The notes under the pieces: model-generated | What the model was told of the DNA's origin: nothing | Databases searched by the model: none | What the model saw: the letters and a program-made list of their open reading frames with translations, nothing else | Translations under genes and position numbers: made by a program | In this document: positions 11,620-20,164 of the stretch, piece after piece | How the letters are laid out: each line of letters opens with the position of its first letter | Numbering within the stretch: the first letter of the stretch is position 1 | Virus record (IMG/VR): IMGVR_UViG_3300005253_000063 | Coordinates: 1-64,000 of that record | Reading direction: 5' to 3' (one strand) | Origin: a virus | DNA: 64,000 bases

Positions 11620-11978
11620 CTGCCACCGGCTACCATCGCGGAAACTTGATGTACTTTGACAGCGCCGCGCAAGCATGGTGCTACATGGACACTGAGCAGC
11701 CGGTCGCCGACGCGCCGGACAGGCAGTGCGGGTTCTGTGGGCTCGGTAGCACGCCGGAAGGACATGACGGATGCTTGGGCGCGTTGCCGGGAGTGATGAA
11801 TGCGTGTTGCGGGCACGGACGGCAAAAAGAAGCCTACGTGCAGTTCAACCCGGACGCGCGGATCAGCGGTACCGAAGCGTTGAACTGGATCATGGCTACA
11901 ACAATCCGCCTCACCGTTCATGGGGAGGATGCGGACGAAATGCTCGACAAACCGATGTCCACCGCCGTGAAGCCGTAG
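11616..11978 (+). CDS. Conserved phage Cys-rich protein (CGFCGLxxTPEGHDGC type)
   Basis: This is a 120-aa product starting MTATGYHRGNLMYFD. Residues ~38-70 hold CGFCGL, then TPEGHDGCLGALPGVMNACC with GHG. I recall this Cys/His block from many hypothetical phage proteins, where it probably binds zinc. The C-terminal half (ISGTEALNWIMATTIRL) is less conserved. The ATG overlaps the stop of the 34-aa gene upstream. Confidence 0.75.
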   Translation: MTATGYHRGNLMYFDSAAQAWCYMDTEQPVADAPDRQCGFCGLGSTPEGHDGCLGALPGVMNACCGHGRQKEAYVQFNPDARISGTEALNWIMATTIRLTVHGEDADEMLDKPMSTAVKP

Positions 11979-11996: not shown

Positions 11997-12377
11997 ATGA
12001 ACGCTCACGACACGGTGTATGCCGAGCTAGACCGACTGGAGCCCAACGTCAAGCGGACGCTGCTCCAGACCGTTTGGACCAACTACTTCGAGGCGGACTC
12101 CGAGTTACGCGCTTGGGTCCTGCGGCGGAGCGCGACTCACGGCGTTGCGGACGAGCTGCGCGCGGCGGATGCGAGATGGCGGCTTCGAGAGAAAGCCAAG
12201 CTGCGCGGCAACGTCCACTTGATTGGTTGCAAGCCGAACGGTCTGGTGACGATCATGGCTCCGCCCGCCCAACTGTCAAAGGAGAACGCGCTGGAGTTCG
12301 CTGCGCGGGTCGTCGCGATGGCGATGCCCGACGATGGCGAGTTCGAGCAGGTCCTCGATGCGGTCCGCAACACGTGA
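11997..12377 (+). CDS. Hypothetical protein with internal DARWRL motif
   Basis: This is a 126-aa product, ATG preceded by an SD-like GAAGGTGAAG. The N-terminal 55 residues are helical and acidic (ELDRLEPNVKRTLLQTVW). RAADARWRLREKAKL in the middle contains the DAR-x-RL peptide found at the C-termini of several leftward genes. A beta-rich part follows (NVHLIGCKPNGLVTIMAPP). The TGA lies inside the first core of repeat array 1 (ACGTGAGCC). Confidence 0.65.
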   Translation: MNAHDTVYAELDRLEPNVKRTLLQTVWTNYFEADSELRAWVLRRSATHGVADELRAADARWRLREKAKLRGNVHLIGCKPNGLVTIMAPPAQLSKENALEFAARVVAMAMPDDGEFEQVLDAVRNT

Positions 12378-12533
12378 GCCATGGGTAGAGCGGCATCCCC
12401 ACTACACAAGCGCGAGCCGATGTACACGCGACACCCCTTCGAGAGACGCGAGCCGCAGTTTTCACGATCACCCACAGTCAGAGCGCGAGCCGATCGGGTT
12501 GCGAAAAGCCGCGGTCGATGCGCAAGTCTAAAG
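12374..12533 (+). repeat. 36-bp unit array 1 (about 4 units)
   Basis: Core 1 (GCGAGCC) starts at 12374 (GTGAGCC, which includes the stop codon of the gene before), 12412, 12448 and 12485, with a decayed copy at 12522 (GCAAGTC). Spacings are 38, 36, 37 and 37. Between the cores stand nine variable bases and then core 2 (CGACACCC, CGATCACCC). The array ends just before the SD and start of the next gene. Confidence 0.85.
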
Positions 12534-12535
12534 GC

Positions 12536-12733
12536 ATGGCCGAACCAGTACGCATCTCCGATGTGACCGTGGTCCGCGAGACGGACCTGGCACTGCTCTG
12601 CGATATCGAGGGCGAGGAATATTGGATTCCCAAGTCGCAGATCCACGATGACTCGGAGGTGTACGAAGACGGCACCGAAGGCGACCTTGTCATCAGCGCG
12701 TGGCTCGCGAAACAAAAGGATCTTGCGGGGTGA
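12536..12733 (+). CDS. Conserved small phage protein (WIPxSQI type)
   Basis: This is a 65-aa product starting MAEPVRISDVTVVRET. The start ATG follows AAAGG by two to three bases; an upstream in-frame ATG at 12518 lies inside the repeat array and is less likely. The core LLCDIEGEEYWIPKSQIHDD, then SEV and GDLVISAWLAKQKDL, matches a short protein I recall from many phages. The role is unknown. It is the only gene between arrays 1 and 2. Confidence 0.75.
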   Translation: MAEPVRISDVTVVRETDLALLCDIEGEEYWIPKSQIHDDSEVYEDGTEGDLVISAWLAKQKDLAG

Positions 12734-12735
12734 AC

Positions 12736-13590
12736 GCGAGCTGTCAACGAAGCGGTACCCTATTAGCCGACGCGAGCCGACGCCAAAGCGACAACCTAGG
12801 CAGAGACGCGAGCCACCGACTTGACGACACCCGTCCATCTGGCGCGAGCCGCAATCGTAACGTCGCCCAGAACTAAGGCGCGAGCCGCGGTTGTAGCGTC
12901 ACCCGCAGTTGCCATGCGAGCCACTTTGCGGACGACACCCTATCTTCGCGCGCGTGCCGATTGTCGTGCGACCCCCGATGGCTTCACGCGTGCCGTGCCT
13001 AATGCGTAACCCGGAGATGAGACGCGAGCCTTGGCTCAAACGGCTCCCAGTCGTCGACGCGCGAGCCATACGAGTTGCGACACCCGCTGGACCCGAGCGA
13101 GCCGTATCACACGCGCCAACCATCAAACACACGCGAGCCGGATAGGCAACGACCTCCATGCACAAAGCGCGAGCCGATCAGAGGACGTCACCCTACCAAG
13201 CGGCGCGTGCCTCTTCAACACACGACACCCGTCACAGATGCGCGAGCCCATGCTCACGCGACACCCAACGGACCTACGCGTGCCTGCAAGACTCGTTACC
13301 CGTCTTCGCAGCGCGTGCCAGATAAGAAGCGACTTCCGATGTATGAGCGCGAGCCCCAACTCCAACGACCCCCGCTGTGGTTGCGCGAGCCTTGATAGAT
13401 GCGACCTCCGTTGCTCCAACGCGAGCCGTGTCCGTATGACCCCCTATGGATCTACGCGAGTCGAAGATGTAGCGACACCCGTTCAAGCAGCACGAGCCTT
13501 CCCAAGCACGACATCCTCGCCTGCCGCGCGAGCCTTGTGAGCAGCGACACCCACGCAGCGAATGCGGGCCAACAAACAGTCAACCGGAGG
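12736..13590 (+). repeat. 36-bp unit array 2 (24 units, 0.86 kb)
   Basis: Core 1 (GCGAGCC; GCGTGCC in five units) begins at 12736, 12772, 12808 and so on to 13564. Spacing is 36 in most cases, 35 or 37 in a few. Each unit reads GCGAGCC, 9 variable bases, (A/G)CGACACCC or a variant, then 9-12 variable bases. Spacers differ between units while cores persist. In one frame the cores would read R-E-P and R-H-P, but one-base length changes and stops break that frame, so it is not coding. The last unit merges into the SD of the gene at 13596. Confidence 0.9.
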
Positions 13591-13595
13591 ATCGA

Positions 13596-13802
13596 ATGAG
13601 TCGAACCAAGAAGGGTGTAGTTGTATCGCAAGAGCGGTCATTGCAGGGACCTGCAGGAGACGCCGAGGACGGTAAGGGCGAGTCCATCAACGTGACGGTC
13701 ATGCTCGACGAAAATTTCTCAATGCGATTCGAACTGCCGGCTGAGGAAGCGTCGGAGTGGTACGTCGGGCGGAAGGTCAAGTTGAAGTTGCAGGCGGACT
13801 GA
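13596..13802 (+). CDS. Small hypothetical protein
   Basis: This is a 68-aa product starting MSRTKKGVVVSQERSLQG after a good SD (CCGGAGG). Residues 32-66 look like three beta strands (INVTVMLDENFSMRFELP, KVKLKLQAD). The stop shares a base with the next ATG (TGATG), so it is co-translated with the methyltransferase. The function is unknown. Confidence 0.7.
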   Translation: MSRTKKGVVVSQERSLQGPAGDAEDGKGESINVTVMLDENFSMRFELPAEEASEWYVGRKVKLKLQAD

Positions 13803-14572
13803 TGGTCGACGTGCTGGTCGAGCTGTGTGCTGGGTCGGCGGCGTTGACGCGGTGGTGTAGCGGAGGATGGAAACTCGTTTCGTACGCGGGTGGCAAGGAC
13901 GGCTACGCGGAGATCATCGCGGACCTCATGGACCTACGGCGCGTCGAGCGAGTCCTCCTCGCGGAGCCTGGGATTTGGCACGACGTCTGGGTTGCTTTGA
14001 CGTGGGGTCTCTCGGATCGCGTCGCTGACGTGGTCGAGCAGTGGCAGTATGAGGACGCGCGGACGCTCTGGGATGCACTTCGTGGCGGTCGTGGTCAACA
14101 CGACCACGAGTGGGTCCGTGCGGCACGTGCATTGGTTCTCGTTGCGGGGACGCACGGCGGACACGAGCGCGGCGGATTCAAGGGCCTCCACGTCAACCGT
14201 CCGAGTGTCGACGGCTTCATCCCGTCGCGCGGTTCACTCGCGTGGCGGCTCCGCGAGGTACCCGAGCTTCCGCCAATCGAAGTCTTCAAGTATGCGGCCG
14301 ACGTCGAGCCGTTCGCCGGCGCCTGCGTCTACATCGATCCGCCGTACAAGGGGCGGTCGGGTTACGATCACGCGCTGACGCGGTTCGAGGTCATCGAGCT
14401 TGCGATGGCGTGGAAGAATGCGGGCGCCCGCGTCGTGGCCGTGTCGGAGGCGGCGCCTCTTCAATTCGACGACAGTTGGACGACACACGAACTCACGGCG
14501 GCTCGGCGTGGTCAGGTGCGCCGCAATTCCAGATCGGCGCAGGAGTGGTTGACGGTGTACAAGAAGACGTGA
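13802..14572 (+). CDS. D12-like DNA adenine methyltransferase
   Basis: This is a 256-aa product starting MVDVLVELCAGSAALTRWCS. The AdoMet-binding motif I appears as ELCAGSAAL (residues ~7-15), followed by YAGGKDGYAE. The catalytic motif IV is DPPY (VYIDPPYKGRSGYD, residues ~179-182). The order motif I before DPPY and the size fit Dam/D12-type N6-adenine methylases. The target site is unknown. A second methylase domain of this type is inside the polyprotein at 26066. The TGA lies inside core 1 of array 3. Confidence 0.75.
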   Translation: MVDVLVELCAGSAALTRWCSGGWKLVSYAGGKDGYAEIIADLMDLRRVERVLLAEPGIWHDVWVALTWGLSDRVADVVEQWQYEDARTLWDALRGGRGQHDHEWVRAARALVLVAGTHGGHERGGFKGLHVNRPSVDGFIPSRGSLAWRLREVPELPPIEVFKYAADVEPFAGACVYIDPPYKGRSGYDHALTRFEVIELAMAWKNAGARVVAVSEAAPLQFDDSWTTHELTAARRGQVRRNSRSAQEWLTVYKKT

Positions 14573-14657
14573 GCCGTGCACGCAGCGACATCCGCACTTG
14601 CAACGCGAGCCGTGCACCCAGCGACAACCAAACGCGAAGCGCGATACAGTCCTAGCG
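14569..14657 (+). repeat. 36-bp unit array 3 (2-3 units)
   Basis: Units begin at 14569 (GTGAGCC, holding the stop codon of the methyltransferase), 14605 (GCGAGCC) and 14641 (GCGATAC, decayed), spaced exactly 36. The first two share nearly the same first spacer (GTGCACGCA and GTGCACCCA). The third is cut off by the ATG of the next gene at 14658. Confidence 0.8.
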
Positions 14658-15104
14658 ATGGCTGACGAGCTGCCACCTTTCGATCCTGAGAAGTTCGACG
14701 GCATCGCCGTCACCCACGAGCGCCTGCTTTGCGCGCGTCACGGCGAGCCGTATCGCGCGCAGTGGCCGAAGGGTTTCGCGATCACGGTGGTCGCGCTGAT
14801 GGACTACATCTTCAAGCGTGACGACGTGGCGGCCGAGGCGCGCGAGTTGGCTGGTTGCGGGCCGGGCGACAAGCCGGAGCCGAAGGTCGTTGAGCAGGTT
14901 CTCGATCGGATTCCCGCCTGCTGCCGTGTGCACACCAAGCAGCTCCGCGAGGTCTACGTCAAAGCGAAGATCGGAACGCGTGCGCGCTGCGAGGATTGTC
15001 GACGGAAACGGTTTGGTACAAGCTACCTCTCGCAGGAGCGCGAGTTCGCGCATCTGTGCTTCGACTGCGTGCTCGACCCGGATCGCTGGAGGTCGTACAA
15101 CTGA
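14658..15104 (+). CDS. Hypothetical protein with C-terminal zinc ribbon
   Basis: This is a 148-aa product starting MADELPPFDPEKFDGIAVTH; an upstream ATG at 14598 would read through array 3. The N-terminal half carries LLCARHGEPYRAQWPKGF. PACCRVH lies in the middle, and the C-terminal part has CEDC then CFDC about 23 residues on, a zinc ribbon. The stop shares a base with the next ATG. The function is unknown. Confidence 0.65.
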   Translation: MADELPPFDPEKFDGIAVTHERLLCARHGEPYRAQWPKGFAITVVALMDYIFKRDDVAAEARELAGCGPGDKPEPKVVEQVLDRIPACCRVHTKQLREVYVKAKIGTRARCEDCRRKRFGTSYLSQEREFAHLCFDCVLDPDRWRSYN

Positions 15105-15217
15105 TGGGCAAACGTCTGGACTTGTTCAAGCACTTCTTCATGACCGGCTCGTTGCCGCTGCTCGTCTTCTTCATCGTCCTTGCGGTGGGGGTGCTGCTCG
15201 TGGTGTGGTTGAGGTAG
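15104..15217 (+). CDS. 37-aa single-span membrane protein
   Basis: The ATG shares a base with the upstream stop (TGATG). MGKRLDLFKHFFMTGS is followed by one hydrophobic span (LPLLVFFIVLAVGVLLVVWL) reaching the C-terminus. The topology would be a short basic N-terminal tail and one helix. It lies one base ahead of the large terminase gene. A holin-like or regulatory peptide is possible, but the role is unknown. Confidence 0.6.
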   Translation: MGKRLDLFKHFFMTGSLPLLVFFIVLAVGVLLVVWLR

Positions 15218-15218
15218 C

Positions 15219-16721
15219 TTGAGCGCACAACAGCAACGACCCGACGAGACCATGGCGGAAGTGCATGATCGTGCACGTCGACAGGTCGCGCTGCGCGTTC
15301 AGGTTGCACGTGGCAACGTCAATGAATTTTGCGAGCTGGTCCTCAAAGATGAGCAGACCGGGCAGCCGATTGAGCAGGCGTCGATCCATGAGGAATGGCA
15401 CCAGCTTGCCGAAGAGAACGATCGCGTAATCTTGTGGTCATTCACCGAAGGCGGGAAGACACAGCAGCTCTCGATCGCGCGCACGCTGCACGCGCTCGGT
15501 CGTGACACGAGCACACGCGTTGCGATCATCTCGAACACGCACGAGCAGGCGTCGAAGGTCATTCGCGCGGTCGCACACTTTATCGAGAAGTCCGAAGACT
15601 TGCGCGTGGTCTTCCCCGACCTAAAGAAGTCGGAGCCCTGGACCGGGCATCACCTCTACATCGACCGTTTGTTCCGCGCAAAAGATCCGAGCGTTCAGGC
15701 ATGCGGCGTTCACGGCGCGATCGTCGGCTCTCGCATCGATCTGCTCATCCTCGACGACATACTCGACTACGAGAACTGCCAGACCGTTGCTGCTCGCCAA
15801 GACCTTTGGGACTGGTACCACTCCGCGCTCGCCAGCCGTTTGACGGATCGCGCCCGCGTGCTCATCATTGGCACCGCGTTCCACCCCGAAGATTTGCTGC
15901 ACCGGCTCGCGGGGAATCCAGCTTGGATTGCAAAGCGCTTCCCCGTCATCTCCGACGCCGGTGTCTCCGCTTGGCCGGAGAAGTGGTCGGCGTCCCGCAT
16001 CCAGCGCCGCCGCGAGGAGCTGGGTCCGCTGGAGTTCAGCCGGCAGATGCTGTGCAAGGCGCGCGACGAGTCGCAGGCGCGGTTCCAGCGTGAGTGGATC
16101 GATCGGTGTATCGCAGAGGGCTCGGGGATGCGTCTCGTTCGTTCGCTCGCCGAGTTCGAGCAGCTCGATCCCGAGCTACACAAAATGGTCCAAGATGGGG
16201 AATGTTCAACGTACACCGGTGTCGACCTTGCGGTGCAACGCCACTCTGCGGCGGGACTCACCGTACTCTTCACGATCCTTGTCGACCCTGACGACTGTCG
16301 GCAGGTTCTTGCAATCGAAGCGGGTCGCTGGTCGGGGCCCGATATCGTTCGTCGTATCGTCGGCGCACACCAACGGTTCAACTCAGTGGTCGTTGTCGAG
16401 AACAACGCGGCGCAGGACTTCGTGCTTCAGTTCGCTCGCGAGGCGAGTGCAGTTCCGATCATGCCGTTCACTACTGGGCGCAACAAGGCGCATCCCGAGT
16501 TCGGCATCGAGTCGCTCGCGGCGGAGATGGCCGGTGGCAAGTGGCTCATCCCAAACGATGGCGGCAAGCTCGACCCCGAAGTCGAGGCATGGATCAGCGA
16601 GATGTTGTACTACGACCCGCGCTCGCACACAGGTGACCGGCTTATGGGATGCTGGTTTTCGCGCGAAGGTGCACGACTCGGCGGCCATAATTGTGCGGTG
16701 AATGCGCGGATCATCGGGTAA
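15219..16721 (+). CDS. terL: Terminase large subunit
   Basis: This is a 500-aa product with a TTG start after GAGGTAG. The ATPase domain has a Walker A of the deviant terminase type, SFTEGGKT (residues ~74-81), and a Walker B, DLLILDD (~174-180), followed by a GTAFHPEDL motif (~218-226). The C-terminal RNase H-like nuclease shows the first acidic strand in YTGVDLAVQ and the second in VVVVENNAAQD. The length fits the family. It cuts and pumps phage DNA into the prohead through the portal encoded at 21219. Confidence 0.92.
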   Translation: MSAQQQRPDETMAEVHDRARRQVALRVQVARGNVNEFCELVLKDEQTGQPIEQASIHEEWHQLAEENDRVILWSFTEGGKTQQLSIARTLHALGRDTSTRVAIISNTHEQASKVIRAVAHFIEKSEDLRVVFPDLKKSEPWTGHHLYIDRLFRAKDPSVQACGVHGAIVGSRIDLLILDDILDYENCQTVAARQDLWDWYHSALASRLTDRARVLIIGTAFHPEDLLHRLAGNPAWIAKRFPVISDAGVSAWPEKWSASRIQRRREELGPLEFSRQMLCKARDESQARFQREWIDRCIAEGSGMRLVRSLAEFEQLDPELHKMVQDGECSTYTGVDLAVQRHSAAGLTVLFTILVDPDDCRQVLAIEAGRWSGPDIVRRIVGAHQRFNSVVVVENNAAQDFVLQFAREASAVPIMPFTTGRNKAHPEFGIESLAAEMAGGKWLIPNDGGKLDPEVEAWISEMLYYDPRSHTGDRLMGCWFSREGARLGGHNCAVNARIIG

Positions 16722-16749
16722 AAAGCGCGAAGTTCGTACAAGTCAAACG

Positions 16750-17046
16750 TAGAGCCGTAGCACTTGCGGCGACCGAAGTTCCGACGCGAGCCATGAGGGA
16801 TTCGACAACCAGTCATTGAAATGCGAGCCGACCAGAGGACGTCATCCACGCCACGAGTGCGAGCCTTGTCTCAAACGTTCTCCAAAGAAGATGCGCGAGC
16901 CTTCGTACCGACGTCGCCCGCTATCTCTGCGCGAGCCGATCAGCGCGGGCCAACCATGGATGGATTGCGAGCCGAACACTTTGCGTCGACCGTCGCCATA
17001 ACGCGAGCCGCATGCTTCACGACATCCAATAGACGAGCGCGAGCCG
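16750..17046 (+). repeat. 36-bp unit array 4 (9 units)
   Basis: Core 1 begins at 16750 (TAGAGCC), 16786, 16823, 16859, 16895, 16931, 16967, 17003 and 17039, spaced 36 or 37. Core 2 variants include CGACAACC, CGTCATCC, CGTTCTCC, CGTCGCCC and CGACATCC. Two first spacers nearly repeat units of array 2 (GACCAGAGG against GATCAGAGG; TTGTCTCAA against TTGGCTCAA). The last core 1 plus G is followed immediately by the ATG of the next gene. Confidence 0.88.
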
Positions 17047-17304
17047 ATGACTGCTTACTTCCCCGGCACCCTACGTTGCGATGAGTGCGGTGAGATGCGC
17101 ACTGCGAAGTTCGCGCTCACGAGCAGGGGAGTAACGGTCGTGCCGAGCATGCTGATAGACAGTTGGACGGCGGTCGAGAACCCGAGGACGCCGCTCGAAC
17201 CAACGCCGATGCTCTGTTCCGACAAGTGTCTCTTGGCCCACGACGCGCGCAAACGTCTTACGTCGGAGGTCATCGCCGGGCGCGTGGAGATCAAGAAGGC
17301 GTGA
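17047..17304 (+). CDS. Zinc-ribbon protein with DARKRL motif
   Basis: This is an 85-aa product starting MTAYFPGTLRCDECGEMRTA directly after the final repeat core. CDEC near residue 11 and CSDKC near residue 57 make a split zinc site. HDARKRLTSEV follows, another instance of the DAR-x-RL peptide, here with a 15-residue tail. Its stop overlaps the next start (GTGA). The function is unknown. Confidence 0.65.
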   Translation: MTAYFPGTLRCDECGEMRTAKFALTSRGVTVVPSMLIDSWTAVENPRTPLEPTPMLCSDKCLLAHDARKRLTSEVIAGRVEIKKA

Positions 17305-17666
17305 TCGAACTAGTCTCAACCCTCTGTGTCGACTGCGGTGCACCGGTCGGCCCCGACGAGCAGCAGTGTGCGGAATGTTCCGACGCGCGGGATGCCCGTT
17401 GGCGTCTTGACGGGATGGAGCCAGACGAGGGTGCGCAGATTGTCTGCGACCACGTCACCAACAGTATCCTTCGTCTATGCAAAGATGGCGTGCTTCGCCA
17501 CGATCTCCTTGGTCGGCTCTTCGTACACTTCAAGAAGTGGCACCCGGAGATCGAAAGTATTGAGAGCGACCATGACGTCTTGAGAGACGCGCTCATCTTG
17601 CGCGTGAAGTTGTACGGTAAGCCCGCCGTAGAAACGTTGGTCCTTAGTCGGGAGCTATTTCAATGA
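17301..17666 (+). CDS. Zinc-ribbon protein with DARWRL motif
   Basis: This is a 121-aa product. The GTG start VIELVSTLCVDCGAPVGPDE is chosen for the GTGA overlap. CVDC and CAEC are 12 residues apart, and SDARDARWRLDG follows at once, so ribbon and DAR-x-RL peptide are adjacent. The remaining ~80 residues are helical (RLCKDGVLRHDLLGRLFVHF). The stop overlaps the next ATG. Confidence 0.65.
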   Translation: MIELVSTLCVDCGAPVGPDEQQCAECSDARDARWRLDGMEPDEGAQIVCDHVTNSILRLCKDGVLRHDLLGRLFVHFKKWHPEIESIESDHDVLRDALILRVKLYGKPAVETLVLSRELFQ

Positions 17667-18076
17667 GCGAACCGCAACACGCCAACCTGTCGCTCGACTT
17701 CGACTTTGTCTCTTGCTACCGGTGCGGCTCACCGATCTGGATGGAGACGTGGATTCTGAAGAAGCGCAGGAACGACCATCAGGATTTTTACTGCTACAAC
17801 GGTCATCGCCAATCGTTCTCCGGCGAGACCGACGCTGCGCGTCTGAAGCGACAGCTTGAAACTGAACGCGGCAAGACGCGGATGGCACGCGACGAAGTCG
17901 GCAATGAGCGGCGCCGCGCTGACCACCTAGGGCGTAGTCGCGACGTATACAAAGGCAAATTGAAGGCGACGAAGCAGCGCATCAAGAACGGCGTGTGTCC
18001 GTGCTGCAAGCGTACGTTCAGGGACCTTCACGACCATATGAGGACGAAGCATCCGGCCTATGGCGGGCAAGCCTGA
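17663..18076 (+). CDS. Phage zinc-finger protein (ribbon + coiled coil + C2H2)
   Basis: This is a 137-aa product starting MSEPQHANLSLDFDFVSCYR. An N-terminal CYRCG half-site pairs with the later CYNGH. SGETDAARLKRQLETERGK starts a ~50-residue coiled coil. The C-terminus has CPCCKRTFRDLHDHMRTKHP, a classic C2H2 finger. This three-part design is common in small phage proteins that I recall, probably nucleic-acid binding. The ATG overlaps the previous stop (ATGA). Confidence 0.8.
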   Translation: MSEPQHANLSLDFDFVSCYRCGSPIWMETWILKKRRNDHQDFYCYNGHRQSFSGETDAARLKRQLETERGKTRMARDEVGNERRRADHLGRSRDVYKGKLKATKQRIKNGVCPCCKRTFRDLHDHMRTKHPAYGGQA

Positions 18077-18353
18077 CCGTGCTGCGCGTGAGGCCGAGCT
18101 ACGCCTCGGCGGTGTCGACATCCCGTCGGGCTTCGTGAGCCTCGACGAACTTGCCGACAACGTCCGCGCGATCTCCCAGGCGGTTGGCAAGGTGCTCAAC
18201 AATGGTCCGCTCACGCGGCGGGCGATCGAGGTGCTGCTCCTGGACCACCTACCCAACCGCGGGCCGCAGAAGGTTGGCCTTCGTGCGCTTCAGCAAGTGC
18301 TCGACGTGCTCAGCGAGCTTGAAGAGTTGGTGCTCCTCAAGCCTAATGACTAG
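18060..18353 (+). CDS. Small helical protein, possible winged-helix fold
   Basis: This is a 97-aa product overlapping the upstream gene by 17 bp. Residues ~35-95 give four helices (VRAISQAVGKVLNNGPLTRR, AIEVLLLDHLPNRGPQK, LRALQQVLDVLSELEELVLL), which could form a winged helix with LTRRAIEVLL as recognition segment. Its last codons (AAG CCT AAT GAC TAG) fall in register with a degenerate repeat unit at 18337. Confidence 0.6.
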   Translation: MAGKPDRAAREAELRLGGVDIPSGFVSLDELADNVRAISQAVGKVLNNGPLTRRAIEVLLLDHLPNRGPQKVGLRALQQVLDVLSELEELVLLKPND

Positions 18354-18600
18354 CGTCGCCCAGTTCTATCACGCGGGCTGAAGATCATGCGCCAACCGAA
18401 GGAAGGGCGCGGGCCATAGGAGACGGGACACCCGAACGCACACGCGGCGCTGTATACCTCACGGCACCCTAACAAGTAGCGCGAGCCGCAGTCTCGACGA
18501 CACCCGAAATACAAACGCGAGCCTAATGACTAGCGGTCACCCGAATGAGCTACGCGAGCCGACGAAGAAGGCGCCACCCAGATGTCCTAGGCGGGTCATG
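18337..18600 (+). repeat. 36-bp unit array 5 (about 8 units, more decayed)
   Basis: Core 1 positions are 18337 (TCAAGCC, inside the end of the gene before), 18373 (GCGGGCT), 18409 (GCGGGCC), 18444 (GCGGCGC), 18481 (GCGAGCC), 18517 (GCGAGCC), 18554 (GCGAGCC) and 18591 (GCGGGTC), spaced 35 to 37. Units at 18337 and 18517 share the spacer TAATGACTA, so a unit seems to have been copied across the gene end. Core 2 reads CGTCGCCC, GCCAACC, GGACACCC, CGGCACCC, CGACACCC, GGTCACCC and GCCACCC. Confidence 0.82.
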
Positions 18601-18708
18601 AAAACGCTGACGCGCGATCAAGTCGTGGGATAGCGCCGCCGGTGTAATGCCGCCCATGGATGATGCGCGCGCCGGACGAATCACGACGCCCTTTGAAAGG
18701 AGCGAACC

Positions 18709-19650
18709 ATGCCGCCGAAGCGAGTGAACCCAGCAATCGCCTCCGACCGTACTCGAGAGCAGACACGTCTTGGGTTGAAGAAGAAGGTCCGCATGTTCTA
18801 CGACCTGCAGCGGATGCGGCTGCAGTGCGGCGGACGGATTCAACCGAAGGCCGAGGGTAACGAGATCCAGCTTCACGAAGTCGACCAGGTGATCTTGGAA
18901 AACCGCGCGAAGGAGTTGCTCATCGCGGAGAAGGCCGCGCTGCGCGATGTCCAGGACCACCTCAAGACGATGCTCTTCTACACCGAGATCCTCAGCGACA
19001 AGTCGCGCTTCAAGGGACTCGGTCCGACAATGGCCGGTGTTATCCTCAGCGAGTTCGACATCGCACGCGAGGATACCGCTTCGCAAATGTGGGCGTTCGC
19101 CGGACTCGCTCCGGTACCGGCGCAGCGTTGCAAGAAGTGCAACCACCTCGTCGAGCCGGTCAAGGACGCCGACCGCTTCAAGCACGCCGTCAAGAAGGAA
19201 GCACACTGCGGGGTCGACGTGCTTCAGCGGTCGGCGATCTACGACAGCGGCAAGTCGATGCGACCGAAGCGCGGTGAGAAGCTGCCGTACAACGCGTTCC
19301 TGAAGACGAAGCTCGTCGGTGTTCTCGGGCCGTGTCTCATCAAAGCGAACTCGCCGTGGCGCAAGTTGTACGACGACTACAAGCATCGCAAGGCCAGCGC
19401 GGGCTGGGGCACGGGCGACGCGCACCGACACCATGCGGCGATCCGCTACATGGTCAAGCAGCTCCTCCTCGCGATCTGGAAGGACTGGCGCGCGTTCGAG
19501 GACTTGCCTGTCCGTCCGTCGTACCAAGAGGAGAAGCTCGGGCACACGCACGAGGCCACCGCTGTCGGCAGCAACGGCAAGTCGAGCGCCGACGTCGAGG
19601 CGTTGATGGACTCACCCGAGGTCGAGGAAGAGCTGGCGAACGCGCTGTAA
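18709..19650 (+). CDS. IS110/IS116 C-terminal-like (Transposase_20-type) HhH protein
   Basis: This is a 313-aa product with a strong SD (AAAGGAG). Residues ~100-145 carry RFKGLGPTMAGVILSEFD and MWAFAGLAP, the helix-hairpin-helix signature of the C-terminal domain of IS110-type transposases. A CKKC pair follows. The C-terminal part (HRHHAAIRYMVKQLLLAIW, then LPVRPSYQEEKLGH) also fits proteins annotated with that family. The N-terminal DEDD RuvC-like catalytic domain of true IS110 enzymes is not visible, so it may be a DNA-binding derivative. Repeat arrays lie on both sides. Confidence 0.65.
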   Translation: MPPKRVNPAIASDRTREQTRLGLKKKVRMFYDLQRMRLQCGGRIQPKAEGNEIQLHEVDQVILENRAKELLIAEKAALRDVQDHLKTMLFYTEILSDKSRFKGLGPTMAGVILSEFDIAREDTASQMWAFAGLAPVPAQRCKKCNHLVEPVKDADRFKHAVKKEAHCGVDVLQRSAIYDSGKSMRPKRGEKLPYNAFLKTKLVGVLGPCLIKANSPWRKLYDDYKHRKASAGWGTGDAHRHHAAIRYMVKQLLLAIWKDWRAFEDLPVRPSYQEEKLGHTHEATAVGSNGKSSADVEALMDSPEVEEELANAL

Positions 19651-19862
19651 TGGAGGCGGCACCCGGTCCTCACGCGCGAGCCGTTGGCACTACGACAACC
19701 GTCCCGCTGACGCGAGCCGTTCTCCTCACGCCGCCCGTGGTACTCGCGCGCGCCTCACCACTTGCGCCGCCCTCTACTGACACGCGAGCCATAGCAGATA
19801 CGACGACCACTCGATCTACGCGAGCCGTTCTGAAAGCGTCGCCCGAAGTCCTAGCGCGCTTC
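19651..19862 (+). repeat. 36-bp unit array 6 (6 units)
   Basis: Core 1 starts at 19676, 19712, 19748 (GCGCGCC), 19784, 19820 and 19856 (GCGCTTC), exactly 36 apart. A first core 2 (GCGGCACCC) lies at 19655 just after the stop of the gene before. Core 2 copies read CGACAACC, CGCCGCCC, CGCCGCCC, CGACGACC and CGTCGCCC. The array ends at the stop codon of the convergent gene at 19862. Confidence 0.87.
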
Positions 19863-20164
19863 TAACTCATCGCGCCGTCGCTGGGCACCCAACACTGACG
19901 CGTGTCCGGCTCCCACTCCATTCCGTCCAGCTCTGCGCGCAGGTACGCGGGCAGGTGGTCGAGGATGCGCTGGAGGCCCCAGTCGAGATCGCCGCGCAGC
20001 TCTTTGAAGATGCGCGTACAAATTTCGAAGCGTCGTTTGATCTCCGCCATCGTCTGCGGACCCTGGTCTACGATGAAGCTCCCAAAGATGACGCGCTCGA
20101 ATCCGCCGACCACGATCCCGAGATCGCGAGGGTTGCTCATCAGCGCGGCTAGCGTTCCAGTCAT
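19862..20164 (-). CDS. Hypothetical protein downstream of the MuF-like gene
   Basis: This is a 100-aa product starting MTGTLAALMSNPRDLGIVVG after GGAGG. The fold looks helical (MAEIKRRFEICTRIFKELRG) with a Trp-rich end (ELDGMEWEPDTRQCWVP). It ends the leftward head operon (portal, MuF, this gene) and meets array 6 tail to tail. No family is recognised. Confidence 0.65.
   Translation of the reverse strand: MTGTLAALMSNPRDLGIVVGGFERVIFGSFIVDQGPQTMAEIKRRFEICTRIFKELRGDLDWGLQRILDHLPAYLRAELDGMEWEPDTRQCWVPSDGAMS

What the first reader, a model, noticed from the sequence alone, without database searches (positions are those of the whole stretch)
12374..19862. Six blocks of a 36-bp, two-core, two-spacer tandem unit between genes around terL
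Seen directly: about 50 units, all in one orientation, each GCGAGCC, 9 variable bases, (A/G)CGACACCC (often CGTCACCC, CGACAACC, CGTCGCCC), about 11 variable bases. Period is 36 with rare 35, 37 or 38. The cores stay nearly fixed while spacers change from unit to unit. Every gap over about 80 bp between 12.37 and 19.86 kb is filled by them, and none is seen elsewhere in the window. The design is not CRISPR (spacers far too short, two alternating repeats), not a simple minisatellite (spacers not conserved), and denser than phage stoperators. An ordered platform for a phage DNA- or RNA-binding protein (packaging site, partition or origin-type iterons, transcription control) is my inference.
Basis: partly seen in the sequence, partly recalled or inferred. 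Interest (0 to 1): 0.92.

Follow-up and report, generated by a model that had tools for sequence, protein, structure and literature searches.

The report
Phage TIGR guide-RNA arrays with TasA
The repeats are a TIGR array, a recently described set of short paired RNA guides that, in characterised relatives, steer a partner protein (Tas) to matching DNA; here about 50 guide units are scattered between the packaging genes of a bacterial virus whose Tas protein seems to have no DNA-cutting domain.

Summary
The window holds about 50 units in six blocks, all on the + strand. Each unit is four 9-base parts: RCGCGAGCC, 9 variable bases, RCGACACCC, 9 variable bases. The virus genome (118 kb) has one further mini-array at 114.06 kb on the - strand. 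[quoted passage not shown] The gene between blocks 5 and 6 (18709-19650) encodes the matching effector, a nuclease-less Nop-domain protein (TasA). Its sequence matches solved TasR and TasH, and the only fold matches of its model at E <= 0.001 are TasH and TasR. Salicola phage CGphi29, an experimentally characterised TIGR system, carries the same GCGAGCC edge repeat. At least 100 other viral loci have such arrays, most with a Tas gene beside them. What is unusual is the layout: six blocks interleaved with terL and other genes, without terminators. No spacer pair matches the virus's own genome above chance; natural targets remain unknown. Verdict: a real, unusually dispersed new member of a known kind.

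The parts
12372..12528 (+). TIGR array block 1: four units plus a degenerate last edge repeat; the first edge repeat contains the TGA stop of the upstream gene
12734..13570 (+). TIGR array block 2: 24 edge and 23 loop repeats; the last edge repeat lies just before the ribosome-binding site and ATG of the next gene
14567..14629 (+). TIGR array block 3: two units with near-identical spacer A (GTGCACGCA / GTGCACCCA)
16766..17045 (+). TIGR array block 4: eight edge and eight loop repeats, directly after terL
18353..18579 (+). TIGR array block 5: six edge (some degenerate) and seven loop repeats, upstream of tasA
18709..19650 (+). tasA: 313-aa solo Nop-domain effector of the TIGR system
   Evidence: phmmer to 9mty 2e-8 and TasH 6e-7; Pfam Transposase_20 only; PHROG 4285 2e-28; Foldseek TasH 7.6e-8, TasR 1.5e-7
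19656..19880 (+). TIGR array block 6: about six units, the last edge and loop repeats degenerate, directly after tasA
15219..16721 (+). terL (terminase large subunit), intact; a neighbour of the array, not part of the system
   Evidence: PHROG 38 1.9e-58

Best explanation
This is a phage-encoded TIGR-TasA system. By analogy with characterised TIGR systems, the blocks are transcribed, cut into about fifty 36-nt tigRNAs, and each is held by a TasA dimer through the edge and loop repeats. Spacer A then pairs with one strand and spacer B with the other strand of an 18-bp DNA target. TasA here shows no nuclease domain, so the complex most likely binds and bends its targets and blocks their transcription or replication, probably on competing mobile elements. 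Shown by sequence and structure: array architecture, effector identity, and edge-loop covariation across relatives. Inferred from the published family: transcription, processing, DNA binding. Inferred only, and much less certain (about 0.5): targets and biological role.
For: Unit is 9+9+9+9 = 36 bp with two alternating repeats and variable spacers, the layout published for TIGR arrays. The edge repeat GCGAGCC is the same as in the characterised phage CGphi29, read here from its record. tasA lies between two blocks; it matches TasR and TasH by sequence and by fold, all 11 PDB chains with E <= 0.001 being TasH or TasR. Of 119 pattern-matched viral stretches, 108 have arrays and 79 of those also encode a Tas within the fetched stretch, against 0 of 57 terL relatives with either; 129 of 130 blocks run on the same strand as the nearest tas. 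The box D base is the same in edge and loop repeat in 128 of 132 arrays although it varies between arrays (A, T or C), as expected for a symmetric dimer.
Against: No transcription or processing data. No terminator was found after the blocks, although published arrays usually have one. Spacers of 8, 10 and 11 bases and degenerate edge repeats occur at several places, which could mean some units are dead. No target was found: spacer pairs match neither the virus's own genome nor 3.1 Mb of held sequence above permuted pairs.
Confidence: 0.94

Rival explanations
1. The blocks are DNA sites for a phage protein (stoperators, centromere, origin iterons or packaging site), read as double-stranded DNA.
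For: Strict spacing and single orientation; G001, another array carrier, has a ParB-like gene between two arrays.
Against: The array co-occurs with Tas genes across viruses of 36-71% GC. The repeats covary as RNA box C/D motifs should. Relatives with the same kind of terL lack arrays.
Confidence: 0.02
2. TIGR-TasA in this phage regulates the phage's own genes by binding its own genome (a variant of the best explanation, differing in the target).
For: TasA has no nuclease; arrays sit in a gene cluster with the packaging genes.
Against: 40 spacer pairs searched on the own genome with 0-2 base gaps: no match with two or fewer mismatches, and counts at 3-4 mismatches equal permuted pairs.
Confidence: 0.1
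3. A decaying TIGR system that no longer works.
For: Degenerate edge repeats at block ends and irregular spacers; blocks far from tasA.
Against: tasA is an intact open frame that aligns with its relatives over its whole Nop domain; edge-repeat columns remain at up to 1.9 bits.
Confidence: 0.1
4. An IS110-family element with bridge RNAs.
For: Pfam Transposase_20 hit; weak fold matches to IS621 and ISCro4.
Against: Only the Transposase_20 model matches and no N-terminal DEDD domain is seen; the model starts with the coiled coil. Many short tandem units rather than one bridge RNA.
Confidence: 0.01

Closest known systems
TIGR-TasH of Salicola phage CGphi29 (SpTIGR)
   Same: GCGAGCC edge repeat, 36-bp period, second alternating loop repeat, Tas gene beside the array, set among head genes
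   Different: CGphi29 has 8-nt spacers, an HNH-fused effector and one array followed by a terminator; here 9-nt spacers, a solo Nop effector and six or more blocks without terminators
TIGR-TasA loci (for example Flavonifractor plautii, as named in PMC12045711)
   Same: solo Nop effector, dual-repeat array, 9-nt spacers as published
   Different: published arrays mostly have 5 to 15 units next to the gene; here about 50 units over 7.5 kb interleaved with other genes. The F. plautii locus was not compared directly
IS110-family transposases and box C/D snoRNPs
   Same: shared Nop-type RNA-binding domain and box C/D-like motifs (published link; weak fold matches to IS621)
   Different: no DEDD domain, no single bridge RNA, no methyltransferase partner

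Membership tests
TIGR-Tas (dual-repeat type) | two alternating 8-12-nt repeats separated by spacers of about 9 nt, 36-nt unit | tested here: met
   (9-9-9-9), for relatives
TIGR-Tas (dual-repeat type) | Nop-domain Tas gene adjacent to the array | tested here: met
   gene lies between blocks 5 and 6
TIGR-Tas (dual-repeat type) | box D and box C motifs covary between edge and loop repeats | tested here: met
   box D base equal in 128 of 132 arrays, box C third base in 123 of 132; arrays are related, so these are not independent cases
[quoted passage not shown]
   no terminator-like site on the + strand after any block; seen in CGphi29 by eye
TIGR-Tas (dual-repeat type) | processing into 36-nt tigRNAs and paired-strand DNA targeting | not testable with these tools
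   needs RNA and binding experiments
TasA subtype | solo Nop domain, no HNH or RuvC domain | tested here: met
   only Transposase_20; model: coiled coil from residue 16, no N-terminal domain before it
CRISPR array | one repeat of about 25-36 nt and spacers of similar length | tested here: not met
IS110 element | N-terminal DEDD/RuvC domain plus bridge RNA | tested here: not met

The most novel reading that the evidence does not exclude
TIGR-TasA loci can spread between genes of phage packaging modules as RNA-guided mobile elements, taking the place of homing endonucleases: in one relative the TIGR-TasA locus sits exactly in a terL split site that a second relative fills with an HNH-type endonuclease, and in this virus array blocks fill the gaps around terL.
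Probability: 0.12. Interest if true: 0.75.

Novelty: new member of a known kind. Interest (0 to 1): 0.4.

Why it matters
It adds a large, multi-block TIGR-TasA system in a virus. With about 50 guide pairs it is a good subject for the open questions of what TasA guides target and how arrays grow. It also shows that TIGR tandem units can be dispersed through a gene cluster that includes terL, away from the effector gene.

Tried and rejected
Protein-coding reading of the arrays: one frame is open in G002 (12-residue repeat), but stops interrupt all frames of the arrays in this virus, and a column-permutation test over 132 arrays gave no depletion in that frame (a mild depletion in another frame is unexplained). 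Promoter and terminator scans gave nothing useful. Rfam: no match. Target search: null for 2,035 units against 3.1 Mb, and for 40 pairs against the own genome. The idea that TIGR loci always lie near terL: rejected, only about a third of the records with both detected have them within 5 kb.

Full report
Observation. The repeat blocks are real. A segmentation with matrices built from this genome places them at 12372-12528, 12734-13570, 16766-17045, 18353-18579 and 19656-19880, with a two-unit block at 14567-14629. All are on the + strand. The repeats carry up to 1.9 bits per column and most spacer columns are close to zero. Shuffled genomes give nothing. The record is a 118,354-bp IMG/VR virus. 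A second assembly, L009, is identical over 20 kb. One further two-unit array lies at 114062-114124 on the - strand.

Relatives. A stringent pattern finds the same arrays in two other large viral records, G001 and G002. Most hold arrays whose consensus is GAGCGAGCC[A/G], 8 variable bases, GAGAGAACC[A/G], 8 variable bases, in DNA from 36 to 71% GC. A scan of bacterial and archaeal genomes also hit its limit; many of those hits are chance, but 11 loci have both array and Tas.

Identity. The layout is that of Tandem Interspaced Guide RNA arrays (Faure et al. 2025, PMC12045711; [quoted passage not shown] The window gene at 18709-19650 is that effector. It matches 9mty and TasH 21kl by sequence, PHROG 4285 and, as a predicted structure (mean pLDDT 84), only TasH and TasR chains at E <= 0.001, followed by IS110-family recombinases. 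Pfam finds only the Transposase_20 segment and the model begins with the coiled coil, so it is the nuclease-less TasA type. Phage CGphi29, one of the systems tested in the paper, has the same GCGAGCC edge repeat, and so does Microcystis phage Mvi-JY20.

Association tests. Of 119 pattern-matched viral stretches, 108 have an array by the chain test and 79 of those also encode a Tas in the fetched DNA. None of 57 terL relatives has either. Of 130 blocks in 85 loci, 129 have the orientation of the nearest tas; the median distance is 35 bp. Across 132 arrays the box D base agrees between edge and loop repeat in 128, and the last base of box C in 123, as the paper describes for a symmetric dimer. 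The arrays are related by descent, so these are not independent counts.

Mechanism. From the published systems: transcription, Tas-dependent processing into 36-nt tigRNAs, and binding of both strands of an 18-bp target. Because TasA lacks a nuclease, I expect binding, bending and interference rather than cutting; the paper itself leaves TasA's role open. No terminator follows the blocks and all run with the genes, so I infer that the guides are cut from the messenger RNA of the gene cluster.

Targets. Using the published geometry (spacer A followed by the reverse complement of spacer B, small gaps allowed; the order was derived here from the reported 3' overhangs), 40 pairs have no match with two or fewer mismatches in the own genome outside the arrays, and weaker matches equal permuted pairs. 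The same null result holds for 2,035 units of 165 loci against 3.1 Mb; that set includes some chance loci from the genome scan. Phages or plasmids elsewhere were not searched for targets.

What is unusual. Of 85 comparison loci, 60 have one block, 21 two and 4 three (flanks are limited, so these are minimum counts). Here there are six, interleaved with about nine genes including terL, plus the mini-array 94 kb away. In G001 an array lies about 54 kb from the only Tas found. In G022 (L150) the TIGR-TasA locus sits between the two halves of a split terL, and in G026 (L353) the same split site holds an endonuclease gene. That suggests, but does not show, mobility.

Verdict. The finding is real and is explained by a known, recently described kind of system. 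The layout is worth recording; the mechanism is not new.

Noticed in passing
L150:9840-13245 (record G022): terL is split into an ATPase half and a nuclease half, and a complete TIGR-TasA locus (array, tasA, array) lies exactly between them.
   Followed up: partly
L353:766-3356 (record G026): terL is split at the corresponding site by an antisense endonuclease gene (endonuclease VII / HNH type), with a TIGR-TasA locus directly downstream.
   Followed up: partly
G000 114062-114124, - strand: Two-unit TIGR mini-array far from tasA, outside the window.
   Followed up: no
L070:1977-2837 (record G001): ParB-like gene (HTH_ParB 1.2e-10) between two TIGR arrays, downstream of tasA; a likely tmRNA gene follows (read by eye, not tested).
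   Followed up: no
G001 79841-80343: A 14-unit array about 54 kb from the only Tas found in that record.
   Followed up: no
L150:10769-10850 and 12339-12415: Runs of units with the same spacers occur in both subarrays, and another pair repeats near 11870 and 12147, which suggests growth by copying of unit segments.
   Followed up: no
L355:8125-8378 (Microcystis phage Mvi-JY20): TIGR array with a Tas homologue annotated as hypothetical protein in a named cyanophage.
   Followed up: no
132 arrays of fetched loci: One reading frame of the arrays has fewer stop codons than column-permuted arrays (650 against 717, sd 18). Unexplained, perhaps neighbour-base bias.
   Followed up: no
PHROG family phrog_4285: Annotated as transposase (integration and excision) but its profile matches these Tas proteins; the label is probably misleading.
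   Followed up: no
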